Shown in pieces: positions 7,366 through 43,186 of a stretch of 64,000 nt of DNA. The DNA is from Antribacter soli (lineage in GTDB: Bacteria > Actinomycetota > Actinomycetes > Actinomycetales > Cellulomonadaceae): assembly GCF_021568775.1 (NCBI RefSeq), contig NZ_JAKGSG010000025.1:62001-126000 (forward strand), read 5' to 3'. Position 1 is the stretch's first letter; each line of letters starts with the position of its first letter. A model generated the notes under the pieces. That model worked only from the letters and a program-made list of their open reading frames with translations, ran no database searches and was not told the DNA's origin. The translations under genes were made by a program, and so were the position numbers.

Positions 7366-7390
7366 GAAGCGTCTGCGACGGCGCGCCCGG

Positions 7391-7451: not shown

Positions 7452-7516
7452 GATCAGTCGGCCGGGATCAGTGGGCCGGGATCAGTGGGTCCGGCGGATC
7501 AGTGGGTCCGGCGGAT
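7452..7516. repeat. Direct repeats of GATCAGT units
   Basis: GATCAGT or GATCAGC recurs five times with alternating spacers CGGCCGG, GGGCCGG, GGGTCCGGCG and GGGTCCGGCG, ending at the glycosidase stop codon (the last GATCAGC overlaps it). The repeats adjoin the 23-bp hairpin. Likely replication slippage; no function evident. Confidence 0.75.
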
Positions 7517-13509: not shown

Positions 13510-13512
13510 GTG

Positions 13513-16545: not shown

Positions 16546-16640
16546 GATGTTCCTCCTTGAACGACAGGACTGACCCAGCCCAGGACAGGGCTTGCGGCAG
16601 GACTCGACGACGGACCGGCCGACGGCGTCGGCGGCCAGGC

Positions 16641-20867: not shown

Positions 20868-22322
20868 TCAGAAGGGGTACGGCGCGATCCGCGACTGCAC
20901 CGTGACCCACTGGGTCTCGGTGAAGGCCTCGATGTTGGCCTCGTGGCCGCCGAAGCGGGCGCCCGAGCCGGAGAACCCCGTGCCGCCGAACGGGGCCTGG
21001 GCCTCGTCGTCGACCGTCTGGTCGTTGATGTGGAGGATCCCGCAGGGGATGCGGTCGGCGAGCTCGAGCGCCCGGAACGCGTCGCCCGCGAGGACCGCGA
21101 CCGACAGCCCGTAGCCGCTCGCGTTGACGAGGTCGATCGCCTCGTCGACGTCCTCGAAGCGCACCACCGGAGCCACCGGGCCGAAGATCTCCTCGGCGAA
21201 CGCCGGGTGCTCGGGCCGGACCTCGGCGAGCACCGTCGGCTGGTAGAAGAGGTCGGTGTACGTGCCGCCCGCGACCAGCCGAGCCCCGGCGTCGACCGAG
21301 GCGGTGACCAGGCCGTGCACGCGGTCGCGCTGGCCAGCGTCGATGATCGGGCCGAGCGGCGTGCCGGTGGACGGGTCGCCCGCCGGCAGGGCCTTCGCCT
21401 TCTCGGCGAGGAGCGCCACGTACTCGTCGTGGACGTCGGCGTGCACGAGGTGCCGGCCGGTCGTCATGCAGATCTGGCCCTGGTGCAGGAAGGAGCCCCA
21501 GGCGCCGGCCGACGCCGCGGCCGCGACATCGACGTCCGGCAGCACGATCATCGCGTTGTTGCCGCCCAGCTCCAGGTGGACCCGCTTGAGCAGCCGCCCG
21601 CCCCGCTCGCCGATCGCGCGCCCGGCCTCCGTGGAGCCGGTGAACGAGATGATCGGCACCTCCGGGTGGTCCACGAGCGCGGCGCCGACGTCGGCGCCGC
21701 CGGGGACCACGGCGAAGACCCCCGCCGGGAGACCCGCCTCCTCGAGCGCGGCCGCCAGGAACAGGCCGCCGGACACGGTGGTGCGGGGATCCGGCTTGAG
21801 CACCACCGCGTTGCCCAGCGCGAGCGCCGGGAAGACCGACCGGGACGCCAGGATCGCGGGGAAGTTGAACGGCGCGATCACGCCGACCACGCCCGCCGGC
21901 CGCCGTCGGGCCATGCTCAGGCGGGGGTGCGCCGTCTGGAGAAGCTGGCCGTAGGGCATTATCGCCGTGGCCGCGGCCAGGTGGAGCTCGGCGACCACGA
22001 GGCCGACCTCGAAGGCCGCCTTGCCCTGGCCGGAGCCCGCCTCGTCGACCAGCCAGCGCACGAGCGTGTCGGCGTGCGCCTCGACCGTGGTGGCCGCGCG
22101 GCGCATCACGGCGGCGCGAGCGTCGGCGGGCAGCGCGGCCCACTCCCGCTGCGCGGCCGCGGCGCGGTCCACGGCGTCGGCCAGCTCGGCCGCGTTGCCG
22201 GTCGCGACCGTCGTGAGGGTGGCGCCCGTGGCGGGTGACACCACCGCGACCGTGGCCTCGAGCTCGGTCCAGCCGCCCACGTAGGCGCGGCCCTCCCAGT
22301 CCTGCTGTGCGAAGAACGTCAT
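20868..22322 (-). CDS. Benzaldehyde/vanillin-type aldehyde dehydrogenase
   Basis: A 484-residue NAD(P)-dependent aldehyde dehydrogenase oxidising an aldehyde to its acid. Seen: cofactor strand APFNFPAILASRS, KPDPRTTVSGG, FTGSTEAGR (227-235), the general base Glu251 in HLELGGNNAMIV, and the nucleophile Cys285 in HQGQICMTTGR. The AMIV and GQICM patterns and the Phe-rich C-terminus place it with benzaldehyde, salicylaldehyde and vanillin dehydrogenases. The adjacent divergent AraC regulator, of the type that controls aromatic or amine catabolism, supports this. Substrate specificity is inference. Confidence 0.87.
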   Translation of the reverse strand: MTFFAQQDWEGRAYVGGWTELEATVAVVSPATGATLTTVATGNAAELADAVDRAAAAQREWAALPADARAAVMRRAATTVEAHADTLVRWLVDEAGSGQGKAAFEVGLVVAELHLAAATAIMPYGQLLQTAHPRLSMARRRPAGVVGVIAPFNFPAILASRSVFPALALGNAVVLKPDPRTTVSGGLFLAAALEEAGLPAGVFAVVPGGADVGAALVDHPEVPIISFTGSTEAGRAIGERGGRLLKRVHLELGGNNAMIVLPDVDVAAAASAGAWGSFLHQGQICMTTGRHLVHADVHDEYVALLAEKAKALPAGDPSTGTPLGPIIDAGQRDRVHGLVTASVDAGARLVAGGTYTDLFYQPTVLAEVRPEHPAFAEEIFGPVAPVVRFEDVDEAIDLVNASGYGLSVAVLAGDAFRALELADRIPCGILHINDQTVDDEAQAPFGGTGFSGSGARFGGHEANIEAFTETQWVTVQSRIAPYPF

Positions 22323-22468
22323 CGTCTCTCTCCTGCTCGTCCACCTCGACGCTTCCCGACCCTAAGGACAGGGCGCGCCGCCGACCCGGCGTTTTGTGCA
22401 CGTCTCCGCCGTTGACCGTTCGAGCGGAGCGTGCGTACGATCTCGCAACACGTGTGCGGGAGGCGAAC

Positions 22469-23455
22469 GTGGTAGTTCTCGAGGCGGAGAGCGCCGACAC
22501 CTGGGAGGCGGTCGTCAGCGGCTGCTTCGTGCCGCTCAACTGCGCAGGCTTCGAGCCGGACTTCACCGGGCGCATGGAGCACACCGCCCTCGACGAGCGG
22601 CTCTCCGTCTCGCTCGTCACGACCTGCGGCACGAGCGCCGAGCGCAGCCCGCGCCTCGCCGCGCGCGCCGCCACTGACGACCTGCACCTGTCGCTGCAGC
22701 GCTCCTCGACGGGCCGGGTGGTCCAGGACGGCCGCGTCACGCCCGTCCGTCCCGGCTCCGTCACGGTGTACGCCACGGACCGCCCGTACTACCTCGACTA
22801 CTCCCCGCCCGGCCAGCAGCAGCTCATCGTGCAGGTCTCCGGGTCGTCCCTCGGCCTGCCCGCCCGGATGATCGAGGCCGCCACCGCGCGGCTCGCGGTG
22901 CCCTCCGGGCAGCGCTCCTCCGCCGCCGGCAGCCTCTTCTCGTACGTGGCCGCGCTGGCGGGCGCCGGCGGGGACCCGGCCGGTGCGGCGGGTGGCGAAC
23001 GGGGGGACGGCCCGCGGCCGGGCGAGGCGGCCGACGTCGCCCGCGACCTGGCGCAGGTCATGATCCGGGCGTCGTTCGGCGGCGGCCCCGTCGTCCCGCG
23101 GACTGCGGGCGGGCTGCGGCACACCGTCCAGGAGTTCCTGCGTGCCCACGCGACGACGCCCGGCCTCGACGTCGAGGAGGTGGCGCGCTGCCACTTCGTC
23201 TCGCGCCGCAAGCTGTACCAGGTGTTCGGCGAGGCGGGCCTGGCGCCCGCGGAGTTCCTGCGCCGCGAGCGCCTCCGGGCCGCGGCCCGCCTGCTGCGCG
23301 CCGGCGGCCCCGGCGCGCGGCCGGTCGAGCAGGTCGCGTACGCGTGCGGCTTCGACGACCCGACGACGTTCACCCGGGCCTTCCGCCGCGTGTACGGCTG
23401 CACCCCCCGGGAGTGGCGGGCCCGCCCCGCTCCGACGCCGCCGGCGACCTTGTAG
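22469..23455 (+). CDS. AraC-family regulator
   Basis: A 328-residue regulator with an N-terminal AraC_binding_2-like sensor domain (TWEAVVSGCFVPLNC; SVTVYATDRPYYLDY) and a C-terminal double helix-turn-helix (LDVEEVARCHFVSRRKLYQVF and the closing GFDDPTTFTRAFRRVYGCTPREW). FeaR- and related activators of aromatic and amine degradation share this layout. The start is GTG at 22469 behind CGGGAGGCG; longer in-frame versions would run into the neighbouring gene's leader. It is divergent from the aldehyde dehydrogenase, its likely target. The stop lies inside a 20-bp perfect hairpin. Confidence 0.88.
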   Translation: MVVLEAESADTWEAVVSGCFVPLNCAGFEPDFTGRMEHTALDERLSVSLVTTCGTSAERSPRLAARAATDDLHLSLQRSSTGRVVQDGRVTPVRPGSVTVYATDRPYYLDYSPPGQQQLIVQVSGSSLGLPARMIEAATARLAVPSGQRSSAAGSLFSYVAALAGAGGDPAGAAGGERGDGPRPGEAADVARDLAQVMIRASFGGGPVVPRTAGGLRHTVQEFLRAHATTPGLDVEEVARCHFVSRRKLYQVFGEAGLAPAEFLRRERLRAAARLLRAGGPGARPVEQVAYACGFDDPTTFTRAFRRVYGCTPREWRARPAPTPPATL

Positions 23456-24899: not shown

Positions 24900-25787
24900 C
24901 TACTTGAGGCTGCCGATGGTCACTCCGGAACGCCAGTAGCGCTGCATCGCGATCATCAGGGCGACCATGGGGATCGTCGAGATCAGCGAACCCGTCACGA
25001 CCAGGCTCGTGAGGTCCACGGTGCTGTCCGTGCCCCGCTGGAGCCAGGAGTACAGACCGAGCATGACAGGCCACTTCTCCGCGCCCTTGAGGAACACGAG
25101 CGGCCACATGAACGTGTTCCACGATGCCACGAAGTGGAGCAGGAAGATCGTGGCACCGGCAGTCCCCATCAGGCGGGCCGCGATGGACGCGAAGATGCGG
25201 TACTCCCCCGCGCCGTCGATCCGCGCTGCCTCGATCAGCTCGCTCGGGACGGCGCCCTCGGCATAGACCTTGGCAAGGTAGACGGAGAAGGACCCGAACA
25301 TGCCGGGCAGGATCATCGCCCAGATCGTGTCGTAGATGCCGATCCGCGAGAAAAGCACGAACGACGGCACGATCATGAGAGAACCCGGGATGAGGAACGA
25401 CCCGATGATCAGGCCCATCGTCAGCGCGCGCCCCCGGTACTGGTACTTGGCGATGCCGTACCCGGCGGCGAGCGAGACCGCGGTCAGGCCCAGGGAGCCG
25501 AGCGTGGAGTAGACCACGGTGTTCCACAGCCAGAGGCCGAAGATCCCGTCCTGGTAGGTGAACAGGGTGGCGAGGTTCTCGGACAGGCGGAAGTCCGCGA
25601 ACCACAGACCGTTCGTCGTGTACAGCTGACCGTTCGACTTGGTCGCGGCGACGACGAGCCACCACAGCGGCCCCACGGCGTAGGCGGCCAGCGCGACCAG
25701 GACGGCCAGCACGAACCAGCGCGACGCTCCCCGGGCCTCGGCCGCGGTCGGCTCGTCCGCGCTGCGCCTCACTGCCGCGCGGCTCAC
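24900..25787 (-). CDS. ABC sugar permease, CUT1 (MalG type), second transporter
   Basis: A 295-residue permease with six helices and the EAA loop ELIEAARIDGAGEYRIFASI. Its GTG start overlaps the partner permease stop. It is the last gene of the operon downstream of the alginate-lyase-like enzyme and ends close to a convergent gene, without a clear hairpin. Confidence 0.92.
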   Translation of the reverse strand: MSRAAVRRSADEPTAAEARGASRWFVLAVLVALAAYAVGPLWWLVVAATKSNGQLYTTNGLWFADFRLSENLATLFTYQDGIFGLWLWNTVVYSTLGSLGLTAVSLAAGYGIAKYQYRGRALTMGLIIGSFLIPGSLMIVPSFVLFSRIGIYDTIWAMILPGMFGSFSVYLAKVYAEGAVPSELIEAARIDGAGEYRIFASIAARLMGTAGATIFLLHFVASWNTFMWPLVFLKGAEKWPVMLGLYSWLQRGTDSTVDLTSLVVTGSLISTIPMVALMIAMQRYWRSGVTIGSLK

Positions 25788-26770
25788 GGCTCGCTCCGGT
25801 TCAGGAAGCGGTAGATCACCGCGGAGCCGGCTCCGACGACGAGCGCGAGCACGATCGACAGCGCCGTGGCGTAGTTGACGTTACCCACCTGGAACGCCTG
25901 GTTGAAGATCATCATGGCGGGAGTGAAGTCCTTCGTGATCGATTCCGGGGTGACCGCCCGGAAGAGCAGCGGCTCGTTGAAGATCTGCAGCGTGCCGATG
26001 ATGGAGAGCAGGCTCGTCAGCACGAGCGGACCGCGCACGAACGGCACCTTGATCGACCAGGCGATCCGGGCCTCCGACGCACCGTCGAGACGTGCGGCCT
26101 CGAAGATCTCGTGGGGTACGGCCTGCAGCGCGCCGTAGAGGATGAGCATGTTGAACCCGATGCTCCCCCAGACCGCCAGGTTGCCGATGGAGACCCAGGC
26201 GAGGCTGCTCGAGTAGAAGTTCACGTCCAGGCCGAAGAGCTCGAAGAACTCGTGCAGCGGACCGACGACGGGGCTGTACAGATAGATCCAGATCATCGTG
26301 GCGACGATGCCCGGCACCATGTACGGCAGCAGCAGCGCGATGCGGAACCTCGCGCCCACGCGGCGGCTGGCGGCGTCGAGCACGAGCGCCATCCCGAGGC
26401 TGACCACCTGCGTGAGGGGCACGACCACGACGGCGTAGAGGCCGACGCGCCCCATGCCCGCCCAGAACACGGTGTCGGCCCCGGCGCGGAGCAGGTTGTC
26501 GGCCCCGACGAACGTGACCGTCGAGCCGCCGAAGCCCAGGCCCGACGTCTTGGTGCTGTAGACGCTCTCACGGAGGGCCATGACGATCGGGACGAGGACG
26601 AACAGCGTGAACCCCGCGAGGAACGGGAGGCTGAACGAGGCGCCCTTGAGCGCCTGCAGGGTGCGCCATCGCGGACCCCGGCGCCGGACAGGAGGGGACG
26701 CTGCCGGAGGCCGCCCCGGGGTGGGTGGCGCGAGCCCCGGCTCGTCTACGGTGGTGGTCGATGCGGACAT
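25784..26770 (-). CDS. ABC sugar permease, CUT1 (MalF type), second transporter
   Basis: A 328-residue permease: Pro-rich cytoplasmic N-terminus, first helix SLPFLAGFTLFVLVPIVMAL, EAA loop EIFEAARLDGASEARIAWSIKVP. The ATG at 26770 has a CAGGAGGGG site. It partners the 24900-25787 permease (4-nt overlap) and the 26812-28143 binding protein (41-nt gap). No ATPase gene in the operon. Confidence 0.92.
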   Translation of the reverse strand: MSASTTTVDEPGLAPPTPGRPPAASPPVRRRGPRWRTLQALKGASFSLPFLAGFTLFVLVPIVMALRESVYSTKTSGLGFGGSTVTFVGADNLLRAGADTVFWAGMGRVGLYAVVVVPLTQVVSLGMALVLDAASRRVGARFRIALLLPYMVPGIVATMIWIYLYSPVVGPLHEFFELFGLDVNFYSSSLAWVSIGNLAVWGSIGFNMLILYGALQAVPHEIFEAARLDGASEARIAWSIKVPFVRGPLVLTSLLSIIGTLQIFNEPLLFRAVTPESITKDFTPAMMIFNQAFQVGNVNYATALSIVLALVVGAGSAVIYRFLNRSEP

Positions 26771-26811
26771 GAGCGTCCCCTCCTGTGTCGTGCGCGTGCC
26801 GGCGGTCGTCG

Positions 26812-28143
26812 TCAGCTGGTGTGCGCGATGCCTTTGCTCTCCAGGTCGCTCTCCACGAACTTCTGGACGGCGGCCAGCGCCTCCTCGACGGTGATCTCGC
26901 CGGCCACGGCCTTGCCCCACTGGTCCTGGAGCTCCGGGAACCACGCGTCGTAGTTCGGCCCGAGCTCGAACTTGCCGACGGTGGCCGCCTGCGCCTCGAC
27001 GATCACGTCGGCCGCCGCGGCGTCGTCGGTGAAGAAGCCCTCCGGCACCACGTCGGCGACGTACTCCGACGGGTCGGGGATCTGGGTCGGGAAGCCGACG
27101 GCGCCGGTCTCGGGGTTACGTCCCGCCTCGATGCCCTCCGCGGTGGTCCCCCAGTCGACGAACGTCATGACCGCGTCCGGGTTCTCGCATCCCTCCGGGA
27201 CGAACGACGGCGTGGTGCGGCCCGGCGTCACGGTCTCGTCCGCGTCGGCGAACTGCGGGATCGGTGCCGCCTTCCAGTCACCCGCCGACTGGACCAGGTT
27301 GGTCTGCAGGCCGGTGATCGACCACCACTGGGTCGTGGTGGACGCCATGTTGCCCGAGTCGAAGTACGAGTACAGCGCGGGCTTGTCCTGGTAGGTCTGG
27401 TTGGAGACCAGATCCTCGTCGATGAGCGTCTGGACCACCTCGGCGGCCTCGAGGGTCGCGTCGTCGGTGAAGTTCACCTTCCACTGGTCGCCGTCGATCG
27501 CGAACCACTCGGCGCCGGCCTGCTGGGCGAGGTTCATGAGCGTGCTCGGGTCCTCGCCGGCGAGGTTGGTCACGTCGACGCCGCCGGCCTTGAAGGTGCG
27601 GCCGGCCTCGAGGAACTCGTCCCAGGTGGTGGGGACGTCCACGCCGAACTTGTCGTACGTCGCCGTGTTGACGATCAGGAACTGGCCGTCGGCGCCGCTG
27701 GGGAGCCCGTAGTACCGCTCGTTGACCTGGGCGGCGGCGAGCGCACCCTTGCTGTAGAGGTCTGCCGACGGCTCGACGGCGTCGGTGATGTCCTGCGCCC
27801 AGCCGTTGACGACCATCGTCGTCAGCGGGGCGAAGCCCTGGACCAGGCACGGCACTGCCGAGCCCGCCTCCACGGCGTTGCGGAAGTTCGTCGCCGTGGC
27901 TGTGTTGCTGGCCTGGAGGACGTACTCGACGACGACGTCGTCCTGCGCTGCGTTGAACGCCTCGGCGTACTGCTGACCCGTCTCGGCGTTCCAGCCCCAG
28001 ACCTCGATGGTGACGGGCCCCTCGGGCTCGGCCTCGGCCGTCGCGCCGCCGGCACCGGCTCCGCCGTCGGAGCACCCGGCCAGGGCAGCCGTGGCCGTCG
28101 CCGCAGCGACGAGGCTGAGCCACCTGTTCCTCGTGATGTTCAT
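26812..28143 (-). CDS. ABC sugar-binding lipoprotein, second transporter
   Basis: A 443-residue extracellular solute-binding protein. Signal peptide with lipobox LAGC, Gly/Ala-rich linker, then VTIEVWGWNAETGQQYAEAFN and FKAGGVDVTNLAGEDPSTLM typical of CUT1 binding proteins. Trp and Tyr residues (TTTQWWSIT, YDAWFPEL) may stack on sugar rings. It is downstream of a large lyase-like exoenzyme, so uronic-acid-containing oligosaccharides are the likely ligand (inference). A hairpin (28244-28274) separates it from the lyase, so it may have its own promoter. Confidence 0.9.
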   Translation of the reverse strand: MNITRNRWLSLVAAATATAALAGCSDGGAGAGGATAEAEPEGPVTIEVWGWNAETGQQYAEAFNAAQDDVVVEYVLQASNTATATNFRNAVEAGSAVPCLVQGFAPLTTMVVNGWAQDITDAVEPSADLYSKGALAAAQVNERYYGLPSGADGQFLIVNTATYDKFGVDVPTTWDEFLEAGRTFKAGGVDVTNLAGEDPSTLMNLAQQAGAEWFAIDGDQWKVNFTDDATLEAAEVVQTLIDEDLVSNQTYQDKPALYSYFDSGNMASTTTQWWSITGLQTNLVQSAGDWKAAPIPQFADADETVTPGRTTPSFVPEGCENPDAVMTFVDWGTTAEGIEAGRNPETGAVGFPTQIPDPSEYVADVVPEGFFTDDAAAADVIVEAQAATVGKFELGPNYDAWFPELQDQWGKAVAGEITVEEALAAVQKFVESDLESKGIAHTS

Positions 28144-28199: not shown

Positions 28200-28219
28200 C
28201 AGTGACCGTTCAGGCACTG
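28200..28219. promoter_or_regulatory. Inverted repeat upstream of binding-protein gene
   Basis: CAGTG at 28200-28204 and CACTG at 28215-28219 form 5-bp arms around ACCGTTCAGG. It lies 57 nt upstream of the binding-protein start, after the hairpin that ends the lyase gene. Candidate operator or promoter element; short arms, so weak. Confidence 0.3.
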
Positions 28220-28243
28220 TGGTCGTGCTGGGGCGCCGCCGTC

Positions 28244-28274
28244 CGGTGCCGGGCGCGCAGGGCGCCCGGCACCG
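28244..28274 (-). terminator. Hairpin after lyase gene
   Basis: A 13-bp perfect stem (28244-28256 with 28262-28274) with a 5-nt loop begins 7 nt beyond the lyase stop. It is a probable full or partial terminator that would lower read-through into the transporter genes. Confidence 0.7.
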
Positions 28275-28281
28275 TTCCCCG

Positions 28282-31200
28282 TCAGCGCCGGGTCAGCAGC
28301 TGGATCTCCGCGATGTTCACGTTGCCCCCGTGCTCGTCCACCACCCGGACGCGGTCGTACTGGACCCGCTGCGGGAGCTCGAACAGGTACCAGTCGGGGT
28401 TCGTGATCCCGTTGAACGTCCAGAACGTCTCCCAGGTCGCACCGCCGTCGTTCGACCCCTGGACCTCCGTCCCGATCGCCCGGGACAGGTGCGTCGACCG
28501 CGGGTGCATGCGGATCAGGTCGACGGTGATCGGCGTGCCGTCGGTCGGGGTGACCGTCACCCACCCGTTCGACGCCGTCGTGTCCGTGAACGTCGTGATG
28601 TCGCCGTCGAACATCCGCCAGCCGTTGGCCTGCGTGGTCCCCGTGCCCGGCCAGAGCGGCGTCGAGGCGTTCACCCACTCCGGCACGACGGGGACCTTGA
28701 CCAGGCTGCTGTTCCAGAGCCGGAGCGAGGACCCGTCGGTGGTCGACAGCACGGTGGCGCCCTCGAGCCCCGCGGCGGTCCGGTAGTCCACCACGAAGCG
28801 CAGCGTGCGGCCGAACTCGACGTCGTCGGGCAGGACCACCTGTGCGCGCCACGTGCGCGGGTCGGTGCTCGTCACGGTGGCCGGGACGCCCTCGACCGTC
28901 GCCCGGACCTCCGCCAGGGGCTCGAGCGCGACGACGTCGAGGGTGACCGTGTCGCCGTCCACGGCGAGGCCCGGGTCGGCGTTGCTGCTCGAGATCGTCA
29001 CCGACTCGATCACCCGGGCCATCTCGTGGCGCTCGCCGTGGATGCGCACCTCGCTGAAGGACGAGATGCCGGGATACGCCGGGTCGGTGGGGACACCGGG
29101 GTGGTCCACCTGCACCTTGAGGAACCGGAACGTCTGGCCGCGCACCTCGGCGCGCACGGGGATCGTCTCCATGACGAACCCGGCCGCGGCGGTGTCAGTG
29201 GTCTCCCGCTCGGTCAGGAGCGTCCACGTGCGCCCGTCGTTCGACCCGTAGGCGTTGGCGCCCTGCGACCGGTTGGCGAAGTTGTACCGGGCCTGCAGGC
29301 CGATCGCGTCGGCGCGGAACCGGAACTGCTGGCCGAGGTCGAGCGTGAACGGGGCGCGGAGGTCGCCGGTCGTGGTGTTGAAGTCGCCGTCGACGAGGTT
29401 GTTGACGTTCACCGTCGCGGGCGAGGACGTGACGAGCCCGCGCAGGTCGACCGCCCCGTCCGCGAGGCGCGGCGTGAGCAGCTTCAGCCCGCGCACCGCC
29501 TCCTGCAGCCGCACCAGCCCGGCGAGGAACGTGGCGTCGTCGCCCGAGTCCAGGGCGTCGACGGCCTCCTGGCGGACCGCCTCGAACGCGGCCAGCGAGT
29601 CCGATACGTACGCCGCGTCCGCGTCGTAGCCCACGAGGGCCTCGTCGAGGGCGGCCGCCCGGTCGGGCGCGACGACGACCGTGACCCGCAGGACGGACAC
29701 CGACTGCCCGTCGTCCGCGGCGACGTCGAAGGTGCGCACCCCGGCCTGGGACGCGCGCGGCGTCCACGTGAGCTCACCGGTCGCCGGGTCGAGCCGGGCT
29801 CCGGCGGGCAGCCGCACGCCCGTGTACCGCAGGGCGTCGCCGCCCGCGTCCGTCGCTGCGAGCGAGCGCACGAGGGGGGCACCGGCGACAGCCAGCACGC
29901 GGCTGTCCCCGACGGCGTCGAAGCGCGGGACGGTGAGGCTCGTCTTCGCCGTGAGGTCCACGTAGTCGAGGTCGACCCGCACGTCCGCCTCGCCGAGCAC
30001 CGTGAAGTAGGCGAGGTTCTCGCCACCGAGGCTGCCCGGCAGCTTGGCGGCGTCGACGTCGAACGTGACGTATCGCCACTGGCCGCGCGTGTTGGGCACC
30101 AGGACGTTCAGGCGGCGTGCCGGGTCGCTCCCGATGGCGACGGTCGCCTCGCCGTCGGTGCGGACGAGCACGCCCACCGGGCTCTCCCCCGACCGGCTGA
30201 CGTACATGAGGGTGCGGACCGCCACCGTGTTGTTGCCGGCCTTCGACGCCTTCATCCGGACGAACGACCGGTCGCCCTCCGTCAGGACCGCCGAGCTGCC
30301 GGCGACGGCGGAGCTGCGCGTCTCGAGCTGGACGCGGGCGTCGGTCGCGACGGGACGCGTCTCGCCGGCGATCTCGGCCGGGAGCGACAACCAGTACTCG
30401 GGGCTGTAGTCGGGGTTCGACTCCCAGGAGTTGTACGGGAGCGTGCCCCAGAAGAGCTTGGGCCCGTCGGCCTTCGCGTGCAGCTCCGCAAGGTGCGGCG
30501 CCTCCGTCTCGACGTCGACGCCGAGGTCGTACCTGTACACGTGGTACAGCTCGTCGATCGGGTTGAACACGCGCCCGCGGTAGGCCTCCGACAGCGCCCC
30601 GGGACCACCCGTCGTGTCGATCCACGGGACGTCATGGCCCAGCATGTAGGCGACGAACGTGTCGGCGCCCGCGAGCAGGCGACGGTCGAGGAACTCGTAG
30701 GGCGACACCGCGTCGGGAGCGTCCGACACCGTCCCGGCCACCGGGTCGAGCGTGGTGCCCTGCACCGTGAGGAAGCGCGCGAGCGCACCGAGGATGTTGA
30801 CGCCGTCCCACGCATGGGCCTGGTCGCGGCCCATCTCCTGGTGCTGCACGAACGAGTACCCGTACGGGTTCAGCGGGTCATCGGCCTCGATGCGGCGGAA
30901 CAGGCTCGCCATCGCGCCGTTCTGCTCCGGCCGCGTCGTCGTCGCGTTGACGGTGTACCACTCGACGGCCTCCTCGTAGCGCTCGCGGTTGCCCGTGAAG
31001 ATGTACCCCGCGATGGCCCCGGTGAGCGGGTACCCGTGCTGGTTGAGGTAGCGCCAGTTGGTGTGGAGGAACGTCTCCGTCATCGGGACGATCAGGTTGT
31101 CCGTCAGCAGCTGGTCGTCCTGCTCGTGCCAGGCAAGGTCGTAGGCCGCGTGGTCCGCGTCGAAGCTGGTCGCCCTGAAGATCTCCGCCGCCGCGAGGAG

Positions 31201-31761
31201 CCGGTACAGCGGGACACCCGAGTGGATGTGGGCGTCCGGGTAGTACGCGTACTGCGCCGGATCCATGTGGCTCCAGATCCGGATGATCCGCAGGCCGTTC
31301 TCCCGGTACACCGGGTCGCCCGTCATCACGTACAGGATCGCCTGCGTGTAGGCGCCGAACGCGTCGCGGATGAGCAGGCTCTGCGTCCCCTGCGACGCGA
31401 ACACGGCCGTCTTGGGCCGGTCGAGCACCGTGCCCGCGTTCGCCGAGCGCAGCGTCCGGGACGCGAACGCCGTCTCGTTCATCGCCGCGTAGTAGCTCGC
31501 CCAGGGTTCGACGCCCGCCTGGACCTGGTCCCGGGCATTTCGCAGGCTGTCGGCGTCGACGCCGATGCCCGGGTGGACGAAGCCGTTGCTCACCGTCTCG
31601 GTGATGACGACGGGTTCGGGGACCGCGGCGGCGGCGGTCGCGGCCGGCACCGTCGCGATCACGGCGGCGGACGTCGCGAGGGCGAAGGTCGTCCCGACCG
31701 CGACCCACACGCTGACCGCACCCCGCACCCTCGAGCGCCTCGTCTTCGAGCGCTGTTCCAT
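28282..31761 (-). CDS. Secreted alginate-lyase-like enzyme with putative-Ig and discoidin domains
   Basis: A 1159-residue exoenzyme. Signal peptide at 1-46; alginate-lyase superfamily (alpha/alpha) domain at about 60-400, with HPGIGVDADSLRNARDQV, the WASYYAAM segment, YYPDAHIHSGVPLYRLLAAAE, FLHTNWRYLNQHGYPLTGAIA and the EMGRDQAHAWDGVNILGAL helix (His and Tyr/Asn residues likely catalytic). Then a beta-sandwich, a He_PIG-like Ig repeat (ATDAGGDALRYTGVRLPAG), an F5/8 C domain (VDGDFNTTTG to FSEVRIHG) and a C-terminal F5/8 C domain (MFDGDITTFTDTT to NIAEIQLLTRR). Probably cleaves a uronate polysaccharide; the substrate is not determinable. The ATG at 31761 follows AGGAGG. First gene of a transporter operon. 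Confidence 0.8.
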   Translation of the reverse strand: MEQRSKTRRSRVRGAVSVWVAVGTTFALATSAAVIATVPAATAAAAVPEPVVITETVSNGFVHPGIGVDADSLRNARDQVQAGVEPWASYYAAMNETAFASRTLRSANAGTVLDRPKTAVFASQGTQSLLIRDAFGAYTQAILYVMTGDPVYRENGLRIIRIWSHMDPAQYAYYPDAHIHSGVPLYRLLAAAEIFRATSFDADHAAYDLAWHEQDDQLLTDNLIVPMTETFLHTNWRYLNQHGYPLTGAIAGYIFTGNRERYEEAVEWYTVNATTTRPEQNGAMASLFRRIEADDPLNPYGYSFVQHQEMGRDQAHAWDGVNILGALARFLTVQGTTLDPVAGTVSDAPDAVSPYEFLDRRLLAGADTFVAYMLGHDVPWIDTTGGPGALSEAYRGRVFNPIDELYHVYRYDLGVDVETEAPHLAELHAKADGPKLFWGTLPYNSWESNPDYSPEYWLSLPAEIAGETRPVATDARVQLETRSSAVAGSSAVLTEGDRSFVRMKASKAGNNTVAVRTLMYVSRSGESPVGVLVRTDGEATVAIGSDPARRLNVLVPNTRGQWRYVTFDVDAAKLPGSLGGENLAYFTVLGEADVRVDLDYVDLTAKTSLTVPRFDAVGDSRVLAVAGAPLVRSLAATDAGGDALRYTGVRLPAGARLDPATGELTWTPRASQAGVRTFDVAADDGQSVSVLRVTVVVAPDRAAALDEALVGYDADAAYVSDSLAAFEAVRQEAVDALDSGDDATFLAGLVRLQEAVRGLKLLTPRLADGAVDLRGLVTSSPATVNVNNLVDGDFNTTTGDLRAPFTLDLGQQFRFRADAIGLQARYNFANRSQGANAYGSNDGRTWTLLTERETTDTAAAGFVMETIPVRAEVRGQTFRFLKVQVDHPGVPTDPAYPGISSFSEVRIHGERHEMARVIESVTISSSNADPGLAVDGDTVTLDVVALEPLAEVRATVEGVPATVTSTDPRTWRAQVVLPDDVEFGRTLRFVVDYRTAAGLEGATVLSTTDGSSLRLWNSSLVKVPVVPEWVNASTPLWPGTGTTQANGWRMFDGDITTFTDTTASNGWVTVTPTDGTPITVDLIRMHPRSTHLSRAIGTEVQGSNDGGATWETFWTFNGITNPDWYLFELPQRVQYDRVRVVDEHGGNVNIAEIQLLTRR

Positions 31762-31834
31762 GGAGTCCTCCTGAGTGACTCGCCGGCGCACCTCTGCGTC
31801 GGCGTGTCCCGGCGACGTCGCCGGTGACCGAGTC

Positions 31835-31854
31835 CCAGGAAAGCGTTATCCTGG
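31835..31854. promoter_or_regulatory. Palindromic operator upstream of lyase operon
   Basis: CCAGGA at 31835-31840 and TCCTGG at 31849-31854 are perfect arms around AAGCGTTA, giving a 20-bp near-palindrome about 74 nt upstream of the lyase start. The AAGCGTT centre resembles LacI-family sites. No regulator gene adjoins it. Candidate operator. Confidence 0.55.
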
Positions 31855-34860: not shown

Positions 34861-37179
34861 TCAGTCCTCCCGCAGGACCACCTCGACGAGCAGCAGGTCG
34901 CCGCTGTCCGCGCCGTCCACCGCCTCGACGCGGAACACCACCTCGCCCGGGGCACCCGCCTCGCGCACGGCCCCCGTGAGGTCGTACTCGTGCTCGGCGA
35001 ACCCCTCGCGGTCGGCCGGGGCCGTCGGCGCCGTCACCTCGAGGCCGTTGAGGAGGATCCTCCGCCGGCTCGCAGCGCGGTCGACGAAGCGCGCCCGCAC
35101 CGCTGCCGGGCCGTCCGGGCAGCGGAGCCGGTACTCGAACCATCCCGTCGTGCTGCGCCAGTGGATCCCGCCGCTGCCGCCGGCCCGGGTCCGCTCCCCC
35201 GTGAACCCGTGGTCCACCTCGGGCTGCTGCTCGCCGGCGGCCACCTTGTCGAACACCGTCGCGGCGGCGTCGGCGGCGGCGTCGAGGCTCCGGAGCGTGT
35301 CGAGCGCGCGGGACGGGTCGGCGTCGGCCGCGAAGTAGATGCTGTACCGCTCGTCGTGGATGCCGGCGAAGGGCTCGAGCAGGACGGCGCCGGGGACGAG
35401 CTCTCCGGACCGCTCCCGGAGCACCGCGAGCTCGAAGGTCAGCGTCGGCTCGTCGACGGGCGCCACCGCCGACTCCGGAGGCTCGGCAACGACGATGGGA
35501 CTCTGCCGCATCGGCACCATCCGGCCGTGGGCGACGTGCGCCATCCGGTCCGGCCCCGCGACGAGCCCCGCGAGCTTGCCTGCGCCGCCGCGTGACGCGA
35601 GCACGACAGGGCCGTAGCGGAACGCCACCCAGCCGGACCCGTCGGGCAGCGCCTCGGCGACGAGCCGGGGCTCGAGCCGGATCGCGACCGACGTCGTACC
35701 GCTCCACGTCCGGGTGAGCTCGACGTAGCCGTCGACGACGACCGGCTCGACCGGCTCGCCGTCGACGCGCAGGCCCACGAGCTCTGCCCAGGACGGCACG
35801 CGGAGGCGCACGGTGCGGGCCCGGGGCGCGGCGGACGTGACGCGGATGAGCGCCTCGTCGCGGTACGGCAGCGCCGTCGACACCTGGACCCGCAGGCCCT
35901 CCTCCGCCCACTCGAGGACCGAGGGCGCATAGAGCTCGACCCGGAGGTCGGGCCCGTCGTGCGTGTAGATCAGCTCGTTGTACCGGGTGTGGCCCTCCAG
36001 GCCGGACCCGACGCAGCACCACATCGACAGGTGCGGGCGGGAGTACACGCGGTAGTGCACCGGCCGCATCGGCGTGAAGTAGACGAAGCCGCCGCGCCGG
36101 GGATGGACGGACGAGACGAGGTGGTTGAACAGCGCCCGCTCGGCGAGATCGATGGCGGCGACGTCGTGCCGGCGGTCGAGCCGCAGTCGCGCCAGCTCGA
36201 CCATGTTGTGGGTGTTGCAGGTCTCGGGCCCCTCGCGATCCGTCATCACCTCGGTGAAGTCGGAGGACGGGTGGAAGTGCTCACGCACGCTGTTCCCGCC
36301 GATCGCCAGCGTGCGGCGCTCGACCACCGACGTCCAGAAGGCGTCGGCCGCGGTGGCGAACCGCGCCTCCGGGTCGCCGTCCGGCGCCAGGTCGGCCAGG
36401 CGCTGGTAGCCCAGCACCTTGGGGATCTGTGTGTTGGCATGGAGCCCGTCCAGCGGGTCTCCCCCGTCGGCCAGCGGGTCCAGCAGCCTGCGGTGGGACA
36501 GCCGCCGCCCCTCGGCGACGAGGTCCTCGCGGCCGGCGAGCGTGCCCAGCTCCACGAACGACTCGTTGAGCCCGCCGAACTCGGCGGTGAGGATCCGCTC
36601 GACGTGCTCGTCGGTGAGGGCCTTCGTGACCGACAGCCACCAGTCGGCCCAGCGCGTCGCCATGGTCAGCGCGCGCTCGGAGCGCCCGTGGGTCGCCGCG
36701 TCGATGAGGCCGGCGAGCGTCTTGTGCAGGTTGTAGACCGGCACCCACCGGCCGTTGAGGGAGAACAGGTCGGCGTCGATGCGCCCGGCGGCGAGCTCCT
36801 CGCCCAGGGCAGGCCCGTCGGGCACGCCGCCGACGTAACCCGTGCCGACGGCGTCCTGGCAGCGCTCCAGCACGTCGAGCAGGTGCTCCATGCGGTCGTG
36901 CAGCACGTCCAGGCCGGTCACGGCCCAGAGCTTCGCGTGCGCGGACAGGACGTGGCCCCCGATGTGGCCGTCGAGCCCGCCGCTCTCCCAGTCGCCGTAG
37001 GGCTCGGCCTCGCCGTCGAGCCCCGCCGCGGCGAGGAACGGCGCGAGGAGCCGGTCGAGATCGATGTCGAGCACCGCTTCCAGCGCCCGCTGCTGGGCGA
37101 CGGCGAACGGTCCGGGGCCGAGCCGGACGGTCCCCAGCGGGAACGTCCGGCCGCTGGTCGTGGCCGGTGTGGTGCTCAT
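34861..37179 (-). CDS. Beta-L-arabinofuranosidase, GH146-like
   Basis: A 772-residue protein of the DUF1680 superfamily, closer to GH146 than to the GH127 at 11488. Seen: the KTLAGLID barrel helix, GLNESFVEL, HANTQIPKVLGYQRL, zinc/cysteine site GPETCNTHNM (Glu319, Cys321) and MWCCVGSGLEGHTRYNELIY (Cys388, Cys389; nucleophile Cys by family precedent). The N and H after the second cysteine pair are GH146-like. No signal peptide. A C-terminal beta domain of about 200 residues follows. The ATG at 37179 with AAGGAG is preferred to a TTG at 37200. It stands alone but extends the arabinoside theme. Confidence 0.85.
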   Translation of the reverse strand: MSTTPATTSGRTFPLGTVRLGPGPFAVAQQRALEAVLDIDLDRLLAPFLAAAGLDGEAEPYGDWESGGLDGHIGGHVLSAHAKLWAVTGLDVLHDRMEHLLDVLERCQDAVGTGYVGGVPDGPALGEELAAGRIDADLFSLNGRWVPVYNLHKTLAGLIDAATHGRSERALTMATRWADWWLSVTKALTDEHVERILTAEFGGLNESFVELGTLAGREDLVAEGRRLSHRRLLDPLADGGDPLDGLHANTQIPKVLGYQRLADLAPDGDPEARFATAADAFWTSVVERRTLAIGGNSVREHFHPSSDFTEVMTDREGPETCNTHNMVELARLRLDRRHDVAAIDLAERALFNHLVSSVHPRRGGFVYFTPMRPVHYRVYSRPHLSMWCCVGSGLEGHTRYNELIYTHDGPDLRVELYAPSVLEWAEEGLRVQVSTALPYRDEALIRVTSAAPRARTVRLRVPSWAELVGLRVDGEPVEPVVVDGYVELTRTWSGTTSVAIRLEPRLVAEALPDGSGWVAFRYGPVVLASRGGAGKLAGLVAGPDRMAHVAHGRMVPMRQSPIVVAEPPESAVAPVDEPTLTFELAVLRERSGELVPGAVLLEPFAGIHDERYSIYFAADADPSRALDTLRSLDAAADAAATVFDKVAAGEQQPEVDHGFTGERTRAGGSGGIHWRSTTGWFEYRLRCPDGPAAVRARFVDRAASRRRILLNGLEVTAPTAPADREGFAEHEYDLTGAVREAGAPGEVVFRVEAVDGADSGDLLLVEVVLRED

Positions 37180-37258
37180 GGACGATGCGACTCCTTGCAA
37201 GGTCGCACGGCTCCGTCGCCGGGCCGTGCTGGGGACGGCGCGACTCTACGGGAAACGG

Positions 37259-40381: not shown

Positions 40382-43093
40382 TCAGCCGCAGGTCACCCCC
40401 GGGTTCGCCGGCGGCGCCCCCGTGCCGACGTACCCGAACGACGTGCTCGCGCCCGCCGCGAGGTTGCCGTTCCACGCCAGGTTCGTCGCGGTGGCGGTGG
40501 TGCCGGACGTGGTGACGTTCGCGCTCCAGGCCTGGCTCAGCCCGCCCGGCGCGAGGTTCCACGACACGGTCCAGCCGGTGATCGCCGTCGCGCCGGCCGT
40601 CACCGTGATCTCGCCCTGGTAGCCGCCGCTCCACGAGTTCACGGTGCGGTAGGTCGCGGTGCACGACCCCACAGGCGTCGTCGGGCTCGTCGTGGCCGTC
40701 ACCGCGGCCGAGGCCGCCGACACGTTCCCGGCCGCGTCGCGGGCGCTCACCGTGTACTGGTACGCGGTGCTCGGTGTCAGCCCGGTGTTCGTGTACGACG
40801 TGCCGGTCACCGTCGCGACGAGCGTGCCGCCCCGCCGCACCTCGTACCCGGTCACCGCCACGTTGTCGGTCGACGCCGTCCAGGAGAGCGACACCGACGT
40901 CTGGGTCACGCCCGTTACCTGCAGCCCCGTCGGGACGGTCGGGGCCTGGGTGTCCGGCTCACCCGTGTCCGCCCCGAAGAGGCGGTCGTAGTCGGCGAGC
41001 GCCGTCGCGACCGCGGTCTGCGCCCAGAACCGGTGGTAGCGGAACTGGGGCGCCGCACCGCCGTCGAGGTGCGCCTGGACCTTCGACCACTCCGGGTCGT
41101 CCAGATAGAAGGACCGGATGTCGAGGAAGGTGGCTCCCGGCGCGACGATGTCGCCGTTCGGCATGTCGCCCGACCAGCCCGACGGCACGTACAGGCCGTT
41201 GCCGCCCGCCACGTACTCGTCGTCGAAGCGCGCGTAGTCGCCGCGCGTCTCGTTGGCAGCCACGCCGATCGCGTCGCTGTTCTGCGTCCAGATGGCGTCG
41301 AGAAGCTCGCGTGCCGTGTCCTTGGCCTCCACGTCTCCCGACGCCGCGGCGTAGTACATGAGCGTGCGGGCGAGGGCGCCGGCGACGCCGACGTCCTGGC
41401 CGTAGCTCCGGACGCTCACCGACAGCCCGGAGTTGCTGCCCGGGTTCGCCGGGTTCCAGGTGTCGGGCTGGCCCGACCACGTGAGCTCCGAGGGGATCTG
41501 CCACGAGGTGGCGGTGACGGTGATGTTGTCGACGACCCAGGGGACCCACTTGTCGAGCAGCGCCTTCGCCCGCGCGTCGCCCGTCTCGTGGTAGAGCTGG
41601 GCGACCCGCTCCATGCCCCAGCCCTGCATGCCCATCCACTGGTTCGACGGCGGGTCGTGGTAGACGGGCGCCACCTGATATCCCATGCCGTAGAAGGTGG
41701 CCGTGCCGGCGGGACGCGCCCCGTACGCGCCGTCCCAGCTGTTGGTGGCGCCGCCCGCGATGCCGCCCTGCGGCGACTGCAGCCAGGTGTAGAACTCGAT
41801 CTGGCGGTCGAGGCTCTCCTGCCAGTCGGCGGCCGCGGTGGGGGACGACGGCTCCAGCGCCGGGTCGTTGGCCAGCGCCCACGCCGCCATCGGGTTCTGG
41901 TAGCCGAAGTGCGCGTGGCTCGACCCGATGCGCCACGCCCACGGGCTCGACGTGCTGAGCGACCCGCCCCACGCGTAGTACCACGACATCAGGTAGTGGG
42001 CGCTGTCGCGCCCGGTCCCCGCGGGGCAGGAGGGCGAGGTACAGCCCATCGTCTTGAAGTACTTGTCGAACATCGCGTAGCGCAGGTAGTCGCCCATCTT
42101 GGACGCCTTGCCCACCGTCGCCGCGACCGCCTGAGGCTGACCCTGCTCGGTGGCGAACTTGTTCGCCCAGTAGGCGGCCTCGACGGCGCGCGCGTCGGCG
42201 TCGGGCGCGTTGGTGTACTTCCACTGCCGGGCGTAGGCCGCGTCGCCGGTGAACAGGTCGAGGTACCCGTTCGGGCCGCCGAAGCTGAAGTCTTCGATCG
42301 ACGGCTGCGGGACCGTCTCCCACACCGACTCCTGCGGACCGCGCTGGAACGTGTTGATGTACGACGTCCCCTCGTAGGTCGGGCCGAGCAGGCTCGACGA
42401 GCCGGGCGCCGCACCGAACCCGTAGACGTTGTCGACGTCGGCGAGCCAGTGCATGCCGTAGACCTCGGACGTGCCGTAGGTCGAGCGCAGCTCGGCGCCG
42501 AGCGGGTCGCGGCCCACGGCGACGCTGTTCGTGAGCTGGGACGGGTACTGGCTCGGGTGGTTGTACTCGGAGGCGTACGTCGCGGGGCTGTTGGGGTTGT
42601 ACGACCCGTTCGTCGGCTGGTTCGCCGTCTGCGGGATCATGTACTCCTCGAGCGTGTCCCACGCGTGGTTGAACGGTGCCCAGTCGCCGGTGACCTGGCC
42701 GTAGGAGGTCTCGAGCCACAGCCAGAACGAGTACGCCTCCGACGTGGTCTCGTGACCGTAGTCGGGCGCCTCGACCATGAGCGTCTCGACGGCGTGGTAC
42801 GGGATGCCCTGCGGCGAGAAGTAGCCGTTGGCCGGGTCGTGGATCTTGGCGTAGAGCTCGAGGAATCGGTCCGTGTACTCGCCGGCCGCCTGGACGGACA
42901 CGTCGGCCGCGGCTGCCTGCGCCGCTGCGGGCTGCGCCGTCGTCGGATCGGCCGTTGCCGGCTGGACGGCCATGAGGCCGCTCACCGCGAGCGCCGTCGT
43001 CGCGAGCACCGCCGCGGCCCCCGCGCGCCGGGACCGGTGTCGGGATCGGGTCGGCGGGTGATCCGCCGGCAGTGTGAGTGGTTGTCGTCGCAT
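40382..43093 (-). CDS. Secreted reducing-end cellobiohydrolase, GH48-FN3-CBM2
   Basis: A 903-residue exoglucanase. Signal peptide about 1-49 (RSRHRSRRAG start, AVSGLMAVQPATA), catalytic GH48 (alpha/alpha)6 domain at about 72-705 with YGHETTSEAYSFWLW (Glu119 as likely acid), WRIGSSHAHFGYQNP and GMGYQVAPVYHDPPSNQWMG; an FN3 domain (about 717-800, APTVPTGLQVTGVTQTSVSL); and a C-terminal cellulose-binding CBM2 (about 808-903) closed by two Cys. The layout matches Cellulomonas CbhB/Cel48A enzymes that cut cellulose processively from reducing ends. ATG at 43093 with GAGGAGGG. Single-gene unit between terminator and promoter. Confidence 0.95.
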   Translation of the reverse strand: MRRQPLTLPADHPPTRSRHRSRRAGAAAVLATTALAVSGLMAVQPATADPTTAQPAAAQAAAADVSVQAAGEYTDRFLELYAKIHDPANGYFSPQGIPYHAVETLMVEAPDYGHETTSEAYSFWLWLETSYGQVTGDWAPFNHAWDTLEEYMIPQTANQPTNGSYNPNSPATYASEYNHPSQYPSQLTNSVAVGRDPLGAELRSTYGTSEVYGMHWLADVDNVYGFGAAPGSSSLLGPTYEGTSYINTFQRGPQESVWETVPQPSIEDFSFGGPNGYLDLFTGDAAYARQWKYTNAPDADARAVEAAYWANKFATEQGQPQAVAATVGKASKMGDYLRYAMFDKYFKTMGCTSPSCPAGTGRDSAHYLMSWYYAWGGSLSTSSPWAWRIGSSHAHFGYQNPMAAWALANDPALEPSSPTAAADWQESLDRQIEFYTWLQSPQGGIAGGATNSWDGAYGARPAGTATFYGMGYQVAPVYHDPPSNQWMGMQGWGMERVAQLYHETGDARAKALLDKWVPWVVDNITVTATSWQIPSELTWSGQPDTWNPANPGSNSGLSVSVRSYGQDVGVAGALARTLMYYAAASGDVEAKDTARELLDAIWTQNSDAIGVAANETRGDYARFDDEYVAGGNGLYVPSGWSGDMPNGDIVAPGATFLDIRSFYLDDPEWSKVQAHLDGGAAPQFRYHRFWAQTAVATALADYDRLFGADTGEPDTQAPTVPTGLQVTGVTQTSVSLSWTASTDNVAVTGYEVRRGGTLVATVTGTSYTNTGLTPSTAYQYTVSARDAAGNVSAASAAVTATTSPTTPVGSCTATYRTVNSWSGGYQGEITVTAGATAITGWTVSWNLAPGGLSQAWSANVTTSGTTATATNLAWNGNLAAGASTSFGYVGTGAPPANPGVTCG

Positions 43094-43186
43094 CGTTGCG
43101 CCCTCCTCGGTCGGGACGCTCGACCCCAAGGCCTCCACCAGGTCGAGCCGGGCCCAACTGTCACCTCCCGCCCCGGGGAGGACAAC

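What the first reader, a model, noticed from the sequence alone, without database searches (positions are those of the whole stretch)
28200..31854. Lyase-led uronate operon with its own palindromic operator
A perfect CCAGGA-N8-TCCTGG repeat precedes a 1159-residue lyase-like enzyme with two discoidin domains, followed by a hairpin and a CUT1 importer. Gene order enzyme then importer, without a nearby regulator or ATPase, suggests a transporter using a global ATPase and a distant regulator. The lyase fold's substrate is undefined.
Basis: partly seen in the sequence, partly recalled or inferred. Interest (0 to 1): 0.5.

Follow-up and report, generated by a model that had tools for sequence, protein, structure and literature searches.

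The report
Lyase–importer operon in plant-arabinogalactan regulon
A high-GC actinobacterium carries a secreted, probably sugar-acid-cutting enzyme and a sugar importer behind a repressor-binding site; the likely repressor lies elsewhere in its genome beside enzymes for plant arabinogalactan, so this looks like one branch of a split plant-gum digestion system whose exact target is untested.

Summary
In detail: a 1159-aa enzyme with two discoidin domains, an operator 73 nt upstream, a perfect 13-bp hairpin, then a CUT1-type binding protein and two permeases, with no MalK-type ATPase in the window. The half-sites alone are not special genome-wide (3 exact places, control 4). The operator core GGATAACGnTnTCC is: a matrix built only from other species' sites gives the window site 24.1 bits, next best in 64 kb 7.9. 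It is a LacI-type operator, also directly upstream of the orthologous lyase in 5 of 11 named genomes. The probable regulator is a LacI protein on another contig (80% identical to the one beside orthologous importers), with one site before an exo-beta-1,3-galactanase/GH36/GH43 operon; 6 of 11 lyase loci carry that galactanase. The catalytic domain models as the alginate-lyase toroid (pLDDT 83; Z 24.8 to PL17). No PL family or substrate is assigned. Best reading: a secreted beta-eliminating lyase in a LacI regulon for type II arabinogalactan, perhaps acting on 4-O-substituted glucuronate caps, beside a beta-galactoside-type importer. Against it: no GH88/105 hydrolase was found in the genome, and the closest relatives (Kribbella) lack operator and hydrolases in the DNA held.

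The parts
31835..31854 (.). LacI-type operator CCAGGATAACGCTTTCCTGG (minus strand), 73 nt upstream of the lyase ATG
   Evidence: 24.1 bits with a matrix built only from eight sites of other species; next best in window 7.9
28282..31761 (-). lyase-like enzyme, 1159 aa from ATG 31761 (1169 aa from GTG 31791); signal-peptide-like N-terminus by eye
   Evidence: 11 named relatives at 39-56% identity
30322..31614 (-). catalytic (alpha/alpha) toroid domain of the alginate-lyase type
   Evidence: model pLDDT 83.0, pTM 0.88; PL17 Alg17c 4ok2_B Z 24.8, rmsd 2.8, 292 aligned; PL38 8bdq_D Z 22.6
29671..29880 (-). Ig-like domain (He_PIG)
   Evidence: E 3.5e-9
29194..29409 (-). first discoidin (F5/8 type C) domain
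   Evidence: PF00754 E 6.6e-10
28342..28614 (-). second discoidin-type domain
   Evidence: PF22633 E 4.7e-7; PDB 2yb7 E 1.8e-5
28244..28274 (-). intercistronic hairpin, 13-bp perfect stem, 5-nt loop, no T tract
26812..28143 (-). solute-binding lipoprotein of the CUT1-type importer, distant relative of GL-BP and Bal6GBP
   Evidence: 72-73% identical to proteins in three lyase clusters, L048, L051, L055
25784..26944 (-). importer permease 1 (true start probably inside the ORF, which overlaps the binding-protein gene)
   Evidence: PF00528; UgpA/MalF-like
24900..25787 (-). importer permease 2
   Evidence: PF00528; UgpE/MalG-like

Best explanation
The operon is one transcription unit of a LacI-family regulon for plant type II arabinogalactan (arabinogalactan protein or gum). 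Without ligand, the LacI repressor encoded at G000:C1 10643-11668 sits on GGATAACGnTnTCC-like sites before (i) the lyase-importer operon in the window, (ii) a second importer on C1 and (iii) the exo-beta-1,3-galactanase/GH36/GH43 genes divergent from its own gene. When an imported oligosaccharide binds the repressor, all three open. The lyase is secreted, holds on to the glycan with its discoidin domains, and its toroid cuts by beta-elimination at a 4-O-substituted glucuronate (in arabinogalactan most simply the alpha-L-Rha-(1,4)-GlcA cap), exposing galactan chains for the hydrolases. The importer takes up galacto-oligosaccharides using a shared MsiK-like ATPase; the hairpin between lyase and binding protein probably sets their relative expression. 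Shown: genes, operator, its conservation, candidate repressor, galactanase behind the same operator type, predicted fold. Inferred: repression and inducer, beta-elimination, the Rha-GlcA target, importer ligand, ATPase sharing, hairpin role.
For: Operator directly upstream of the lyase in 5 of 11 named relatives (L050, L051, L052, L054, L055) and elsewhere in the cluster in L048. Matrix without the window site: window 24.1 bits, next best in window 7.9. In 313 kb 18 places reach 18 bits; 8 are the building sites, 3 lie in loci fetched because of core-like sites, 7 are neither; 200 column-permuted matrices give a mean of 0.28 (largest 7; 34 of 200 had any). GGATAACGNTNTCC occurs exactly twice in 5.06 Mb (0.155 expected by composition): before the window's lyase and before the C1 importer. 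LacI on C1 is 80% identical to the one in the Promicromonospora umidemergens cluster, next best in the genome 52%, same recognition-helix letters. Of 11 lyase loci, 5 hold a LacI 76-81% identical to the C1 one (L048, L050, L051, L054, L055), 6 the galactanase at 75-79% (those and L049), 6 the GH36 at 72-92% (the same, plus 49% in L047), 5 the GH43-C2 at 70-81% (L049, L050, L051, L054, L055), 3 the window's binding protein at 73%. Galactanase: 5flw E 4.8e-89; GH36; GH43-C2. Binding protein nearest 7vfq, GL-BP 2z8d, 6q5g, Bal6GBP 6h0h (ligands of 2z8d and 6h0h from PMC8106489, passages). Fold. Known Rha-GlcA lyases of gum arabic: PL27 (beta-sandwich + (alpha/alpha)6 barrel) and PL42 (PMC8377490, passages).
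Against: No GH88/105 (PF07470) match in the genome. The window enzyme's closest relatives in Kribbella (L045, L046; 55-56%) have no operator of 15 bits or more and no galactanase, GH36 or GH43-C2 relative in the 21 kb held; Actinospica L047 has a GH36 relative (49%) but no galactanase and no operator before the lyase. L053, L049 and L048 also lack an operator directly before the lyase, and L052 (7.7 kb) and L053 show none of the three hydrolases in the DNA held. The window protein itself does not match PF05426 at E 0.1. A catalytic tyrosine could not be assigned: the one at a spacing from Asn250 like that in PL35 (residue 310) is not conserved; invariant tyrosines exist (254, 272, 416, 419; 419 also in 4 paralogs) but no residue map to a solved active site could be made. 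Binding-protein similarity to galactoside binders is too low to fix a ligand. No expression or activity data.
Confidence: 0.45

Rival explanations
1. Same regulon, but the lyase cuts another uronate polymer that occurs with arabinogalactan in plant cell walls (pectin/RG-I, glucuronan, glucuronoxylan) and is merely co-induced.
For: The toroid fold is shared by lyases named for alginate, GAG, heparin and ulvan, so fold does not fix substrate; L053 has a GH28-family gene next to the lyase; the C1 GH43 with C2 domain is nearest to xylosidases/arabinosidases.
Against: The galactanase behind the same operator type and the galactoside-type binding protein point to galactan.
Confidence: 0.3
2. The lyase serves an alginate/GAG-like uronate diet unrelated to arabinogalactan and the importer carries unsaturated uronate oligosaccharides.
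For: Best fold matches are PL17 and PL38 alginate lyases; 8 of 12 family members hit Pfam Alginate_lyase weakly.
Against: Solved importer relatives bind galactosides; the shared operator links it to galactanase genes; no GH88/105 match in the genome.
Confidence: 0.12
3. The toroid protein is not an active lyase but a carbohydrate-binding or isomerising relative (dermatan sulfate epimerase shares the fold).
For: Human dermatan sulfate epimerase 6hzn matches with Z 19.2; a catalytic Tyr could not be assigned.
Against: Asn250 (nearly invariant), His252 and E319/R322/D323/Q324/A325/H326 (invariant) are kept in the 12 aligned proteins; discoidin domains on a secreted protein fit an enzyme.
Confidence: 0.08
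4. The palindrome is a chance inverted repeat without function.
For: Exact half-sites occur 3 times genome-wide, control 4.
Against: Cross-species matrix score 24.1 and exact core only twice in 5 Mb.
Confidence: 0.03

Closest known systems
PL17 oligoalginate lyases (Alg17c 4nei/4ok2)
   Same: (alpha/alpha) toroid, Z 24.8, rmsd 2.8 over 292 residues
   Different: 12-13% identity; different downstream domains (Ig, two discoidins); genomic setting is arabinogalactan, not alginate
PL38 alginate lyase BoPL38 (8bdq)
   Same: toroid Z 22.6; weak profile hit, E 0.32, over 55 positions
   Different: no significant sequence similarity; solved chain of about 380-404 residues without discoidin domains
PL27 L-Rha-alpha-1,4-GlcA lyases (BT0263, BACCELL_00875)
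   Same: proposed reaction and substrate; (alpha/alpha)6 barrel (PMC8377490, passages)
   Different: no row named as such in the sequence search or among the 50 structure rows shown, which excludes nothing; PL27 has an N-terminal beta-sandwich
Bifidobacterial galactoside importers (GL-BP 2z8d, Bal6GBP 6h0h)
   Same: among the five nearest solved relatives of the binding protein, E 1e-19 to 1e-20
   Different: distant; ligand not transferable
Promicromonospora, Myceligenerans and Jiangella lyase clusters (L048, L050, L051, L054, L055)
   Same: orthologous lyase with LacI, galactanase and GH36 (GH43-C2 in four of these five) and operators in one stretch; the window's importer in L048, L051, L055 and, cut by the contig stretch, L050
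   Different: in the window genome the set is split over two contigs and the lyase stands directly before the importer; the second PF05426-like lyase of L048/L051/L055 was not seen beside it

Membership tests
Alginate-lyase-type (alpha/alpha) toroid superfamily | toroid fold of the catalytic domain | tested here: met
   model pLDDT 83.0/pTM 0.88; the 50 rows shown have Z 17.3-24.8 and are lyases of this fold or dermatan sulfate epimerase, among them chains named PL17, PL38, PL40 and PL5
Alginate-lyase-type (alpha/alpha) toroid superfamily | conserved Asn neutraliser with His/Tyr base and acid (PMC12088678, passages) | tested here: inconclusive
   Asn250 nearly invariant and His252 invariant in 12 proteins; E319..R322-D-Q-A-H326 invariant and kept in 4 paralogs, which lack the His252 equivalent; Tyr not assignable
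PF05426 Alginate_lyase | HMM match over the gathering score | tested here: inconclusive
   window protein no match at E 0.1; 8 of 12 family members match, best E 1.1e-5, bit scores not shown; neighbour paralog L055:13460-14752 is over the cut-off, E 1.1e-10, and 27% identical to the window enzyme
PL17 / PL38 | sequence membership | tested here: inconclusive
   no significant sequence match to a solved chain; no CAZy models were available
PL27 | sequence or fold match to PL27 chains | tested here: inconclusive
   none named among the hits or the 50 rows shown, which does not exclude it
CUT1 ABC importer | binding protein plus two MalF/MalG-type permeases | tested here: met
CUT1 ABC importer | shared MsiK-type ATPase encoded elsewhere | tested here: inconclusive
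   OB_MalK: one above cut-off on C72 and one weak on C9, none in window; pairing not testable
LacI-family operator | even palindrome with central CG, conserved before orthologs, with a linked LacI gene | tested here: met
   LacI linked in 5 of 11 loci
LacI-family operator | binding by the proposed LacI protein | not testable with these tools
   needs EMSA or footprint
Type II arabinogalactan regulon | exo-beta-1,3-galactanase behind the same operator type | tested here: met
   L074:11779-12732 with a 25.3-bit site at L074:11736
Type II arabinogalactan regulon | GH88/105 enzyme to remove unsaturated glucuronate left by a lyase | tested here: not met
   0 matches to PF07470 in G000; other families that could do this were not tested
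Rha-GlcA lyase activity | release of rhamnose with an unsaturated uronate | not testable with these tools
   needs enzyme assay

The most novel reading that the evidence does not exclude
The enzyme founds a new polysaccharide-lyase family of the alginate-lyase toroid clan that acts on glucuronate caps of plant arabinogalactan in Actinomycetota, independent of PL27 and PL42, inside a LacI regulon not described in the papers listed by my searches.
Probability: 0.27. Interest if true: 0.58.

Novelty: new variant of a known kind. Interest (0 to 1): 0.43.

Why it matters
It turns a vague 'lyase of unknown substrate' into a testable case: a specific candidate repressor, a specific operator sequence and a specific substrate class. 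If the enzyme uncaps arabinogalactan, it would be a further, probably separate route to remove rhamnosyl-glucuronate caps from gum arabic-type glycans, in Actinomycetota outside the bifidobacteria; the arabinogalactan papers that my searches listed are mostly about Bacteroidota, Bifidobacterium and a Fusarium.

Tried and rejected
Half-site palindrome as evidence by itself: rejected, the genome-wide control equals it. The LacI of the window (16641-17660) as regulator: set aside in favour of the C1 LacI, because it is about 27-30% identical to the cognate-type LacI proteins and lies beside another importer. Intrinsic-terminator reading of the hairpin: no T tract, 0 sites found. First structure model with 12 rows failed (pLDDT 51.7); the second, with four distant paralogs added and the beta domain left out, worked. 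PL27 did not appear by name in the 50 structure rows shown, which excludes nothing. Viral collection: no relatives. The 2-hydroxyacid dehydrogenase that recurs in lyase loci: best in own genome 50% at C45, not shown to be in the regulon. Core sites with one mismatch: 10 matches with up to one mismatch at 8 places, 7.6 expected by composition, 1 for the reversed control; beyond the window and C1, only C42 (beside a LacI of another subfamily) and C74 (GAF-domain gene, ALDH further on) were looked at, while C45:31887, C57:185706 and C69 were not. Weak sites of 9-12 bits (L050:2823, L051:4852, L055:4716) resemble the C1 site between LacI and galactanase but lie in the range where permuted matrices also give matches (0-12 per 149 kb, 20 permutations). 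The AraC-type regulator 22235-23455 was not tested as a regulator of the operon. In one search the query for permease 1 was partly out of frame (2 stops) and its rows are not used. Literature; judged by titles and starts of abstracts, no paper listed describes this enzyme or regulon; the library is open-access only.
Full report
What is there. Reading the minus strand from 31854 downward: a palindromic operator (31835-31854), a 1159-aa enzyme (ATG 31761, stop 28282), a perfect 13-bp hairpin (28244-28274), a solute-binding lipoprotein (26812-28143) and two permeases (25784-26944; 24900-25787). The 138-nt gap with the hairpin has 0 terminator-like sites and folds better than most shuffles (z -3.0; 2 of 200 fold as well).

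The operator. The half-sites alone are not unusual: 3 exact places in the 5.06 Mb genome, 4 for the reversed control; the full 20-mer is unique up to 3 mismatches. The comparison across species makes the case. Upstream of the orthologous lyase, GGGATAACGnTATCCC-like sites stand in Promicromonospora soli, P. iranensis and P. umidemergens (two side by side in each), Isoptericola halalbus and Jiangella aurantiaca, that is in 5 of the 11 named loci. A matrix from those eight sites alone scores the window site 24.1 bits; the next best position in 64 kb has 7.9. In 313 kb it finds 20 places of 15 bits or more and 18 of 18 bits or more, 8 of them the building sites; 200 column-permuted matrices give on average 1.36 places at 15 bits (largest 39) and 0.28 at 18 (largest 7; 34 of 200 had at least one). 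L045, L046, L047, L049 and L053 have no place of 15 bits or more; L048 has two, before the binding-protein gene and before the second lyase-like gene, not before the lyase.

The regulator. The genome has 34 LacI-type matches. The one at C1:10643-11668 is 80% identical to the LacI that stands next to the orthologous importer in P. umidemergens; the next is 52%. The letters of the recognition helix (SVPTVSRVL) are the same in both. Around it (L074 = C1:1-20000) lie a second importer with an operator at 6378 and, divergent from the LacI gene with an operator at 11736, an exo-beta-1,3-galactanase (PDB 5flw, E 4.8e-89), a GH36 protein and a GH43 with C2 domain. The exact core GGATAACGNTNTCC is found at only two places in the genome, C1:6381 and the window (0.155 expected by composition).

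Conservation of the set. Searching the DNA of the 11 lyase loci with the C1 proteins (loci of 7.7-21 kb, so absence means absence in the stretch held): LacI at 76-81% in L048, L050, L051, L054 and L055; the galactanase at 75-79% in those five and L049; the GH36 at 72-92% in the same six, and at 49% in L047; the GH43-C2 at 70-81% in L049, L050, L051, L054 and L055. The window's binding protein (73%) is in L048, L051 and L055, its second permease (83-86%) in these and L050. So in Promicromonospora, Myceligenerans pegani and Jiangella the parts form one cluster, and the window's operon looks like a part that now lies away from its regulator. L045 and L046 (Kribbella), the enzyme's closest relatives, have none of the hydrolases; L052 and L053 have none in the DNA held.

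The enzyme. Pfam and NCBIfam give no lyase family for it. Of 12 family members, 8 match PF05426 Alginate_lyase at E up to 0.1, best 1.1e-5; the window member does not. Four paralogs in L047, L048, L051 and L055 (24-27% identical) carry the same E-x-x-R-D-Q-A-H motif; the one scanned, in L055, matches PF05426 at 1.1e-10. A first model failed (pLDDT 51.7). With these paralogs added, the toroid models well and aligns with PL17, PL38 and PL40 chains, A1-III, GAGases II and VII, 6jp4 and 3a0o at Z 20-25, rmsd 2.8-3.9 over 292-325 residues, 8-16% identity (GAGases = PL35, 6jp4 = PL39, 3a0o = PL15 by PMC12088678, passages; A1-III = PL5 is recalled). Foldseek E-values are modest (best 2.9e-5, TM 0.4-0.5). 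Fold superfamily: well supported by a prediction. PL family: not assigned. Known toroid lyases use Asn plus Tyr/His (PMC12088678 and PMC12336832, passages); here Asn250, His252 and the R-D-Q-A-H motif are kept, and Tyr419 is invariant in all 16 aligned proteins, but I could not show which tyrosine, if any, is catalytic.

Substrate. The link to type II arabinogalactan rests on the shared operator type and neighbourhood with an exo-beta-1,3-galactanase and on a binding protein whose nearest solved relatives include GL-BP and the beta-1,6-galactobiose binder Bal6GBP (ligand facts from PMC8106489, passages); the ligands of 7vfq and 6q5g were not looked up. Two GH127-type genes lie in the window; beta-L-arabinofuranosides occur in AGPs and bifidobacterial GH127/GH146 enzymes remove them (PMC10850190, title and abstract start in listing). 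A lyase needs a uronate with a leaving group at O4 (established chemistry); in gum arabic that is the Rha-alpha-1,4-GlcA cap, the target of PL27 and PL42 (PMC8377490, passages). That the window enzyme does this is inference. Against it, no GH88/105 match was found in the genome, and in Kribbella the enzyme sits beside a DUF3502-type binding protein, permeases and a 2-hydroxyacid dehydrogenase instead, in Actinospica beside a carboxylesterase, a PF05426-like paralog and a GH36 relative. L053 has a GH28-family gene beside it.

ATPase.

Occurrence. Lyase orthologs are rare: 5 of 396 genomes drawn from the order match at E 1e-30, the window's genome included.

Verdict: observation confirmed and put on firmer ground; interpretation partly right. 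An ordinary architecture (LacI, CUT1 importer, secreted enzyme) with an unassigned lyase in an unexpected arabinogalactan setting.

Noticed in passing
window 11488-17660: A second LacI/binding protein/two permeases/GH127 gene set, and another GH127 gene at 34861-37200 with DUF4986 and DUF6805.
   Followed up: partly
window 7516-11415: 1299-aa protein with LamG and Big_4 domains and only a sub-threshold GH39 match; possibly an unassigned glycosidase.
   Followed up: no
window 40382-43138: GH48 cellulase with fn3 and CBM2.
   Followed up: no
window 20868-23455: Aldehyde dehydrogenase (-) beside an AraC-type regulator (+).
   Followed up: no
window 17859-19562: 567-aa protein with no catalytic Pfam family and a C-terminal CBM35/CBM6-like domain just below the cut-off.
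   Followed up: no
L055:13460-14755, L051:13439-14803, L048:2-1447, L047:14546-16309: A second, shorter toroid lyase-like protein in four lyase loci; the L055 one matches PF05426; a partial relative also in L053.
   Followed up: partly
L045, L046, L052, L054 (L052:6359-7387 with an operator at 7366): A D-2-hydroxyacid dehydrogenase recurs in lyase loci, hinting at handling of a uronate-derived acid.
   Followed up: partly
L050:3811-5985 and L074:12729-14903: The GH36 of Promicromonospora soli is 92% identical to the one on C1 of the window's genome, while the other five are 72-75%, which suggests transfer of this gene.
   Followed up: no
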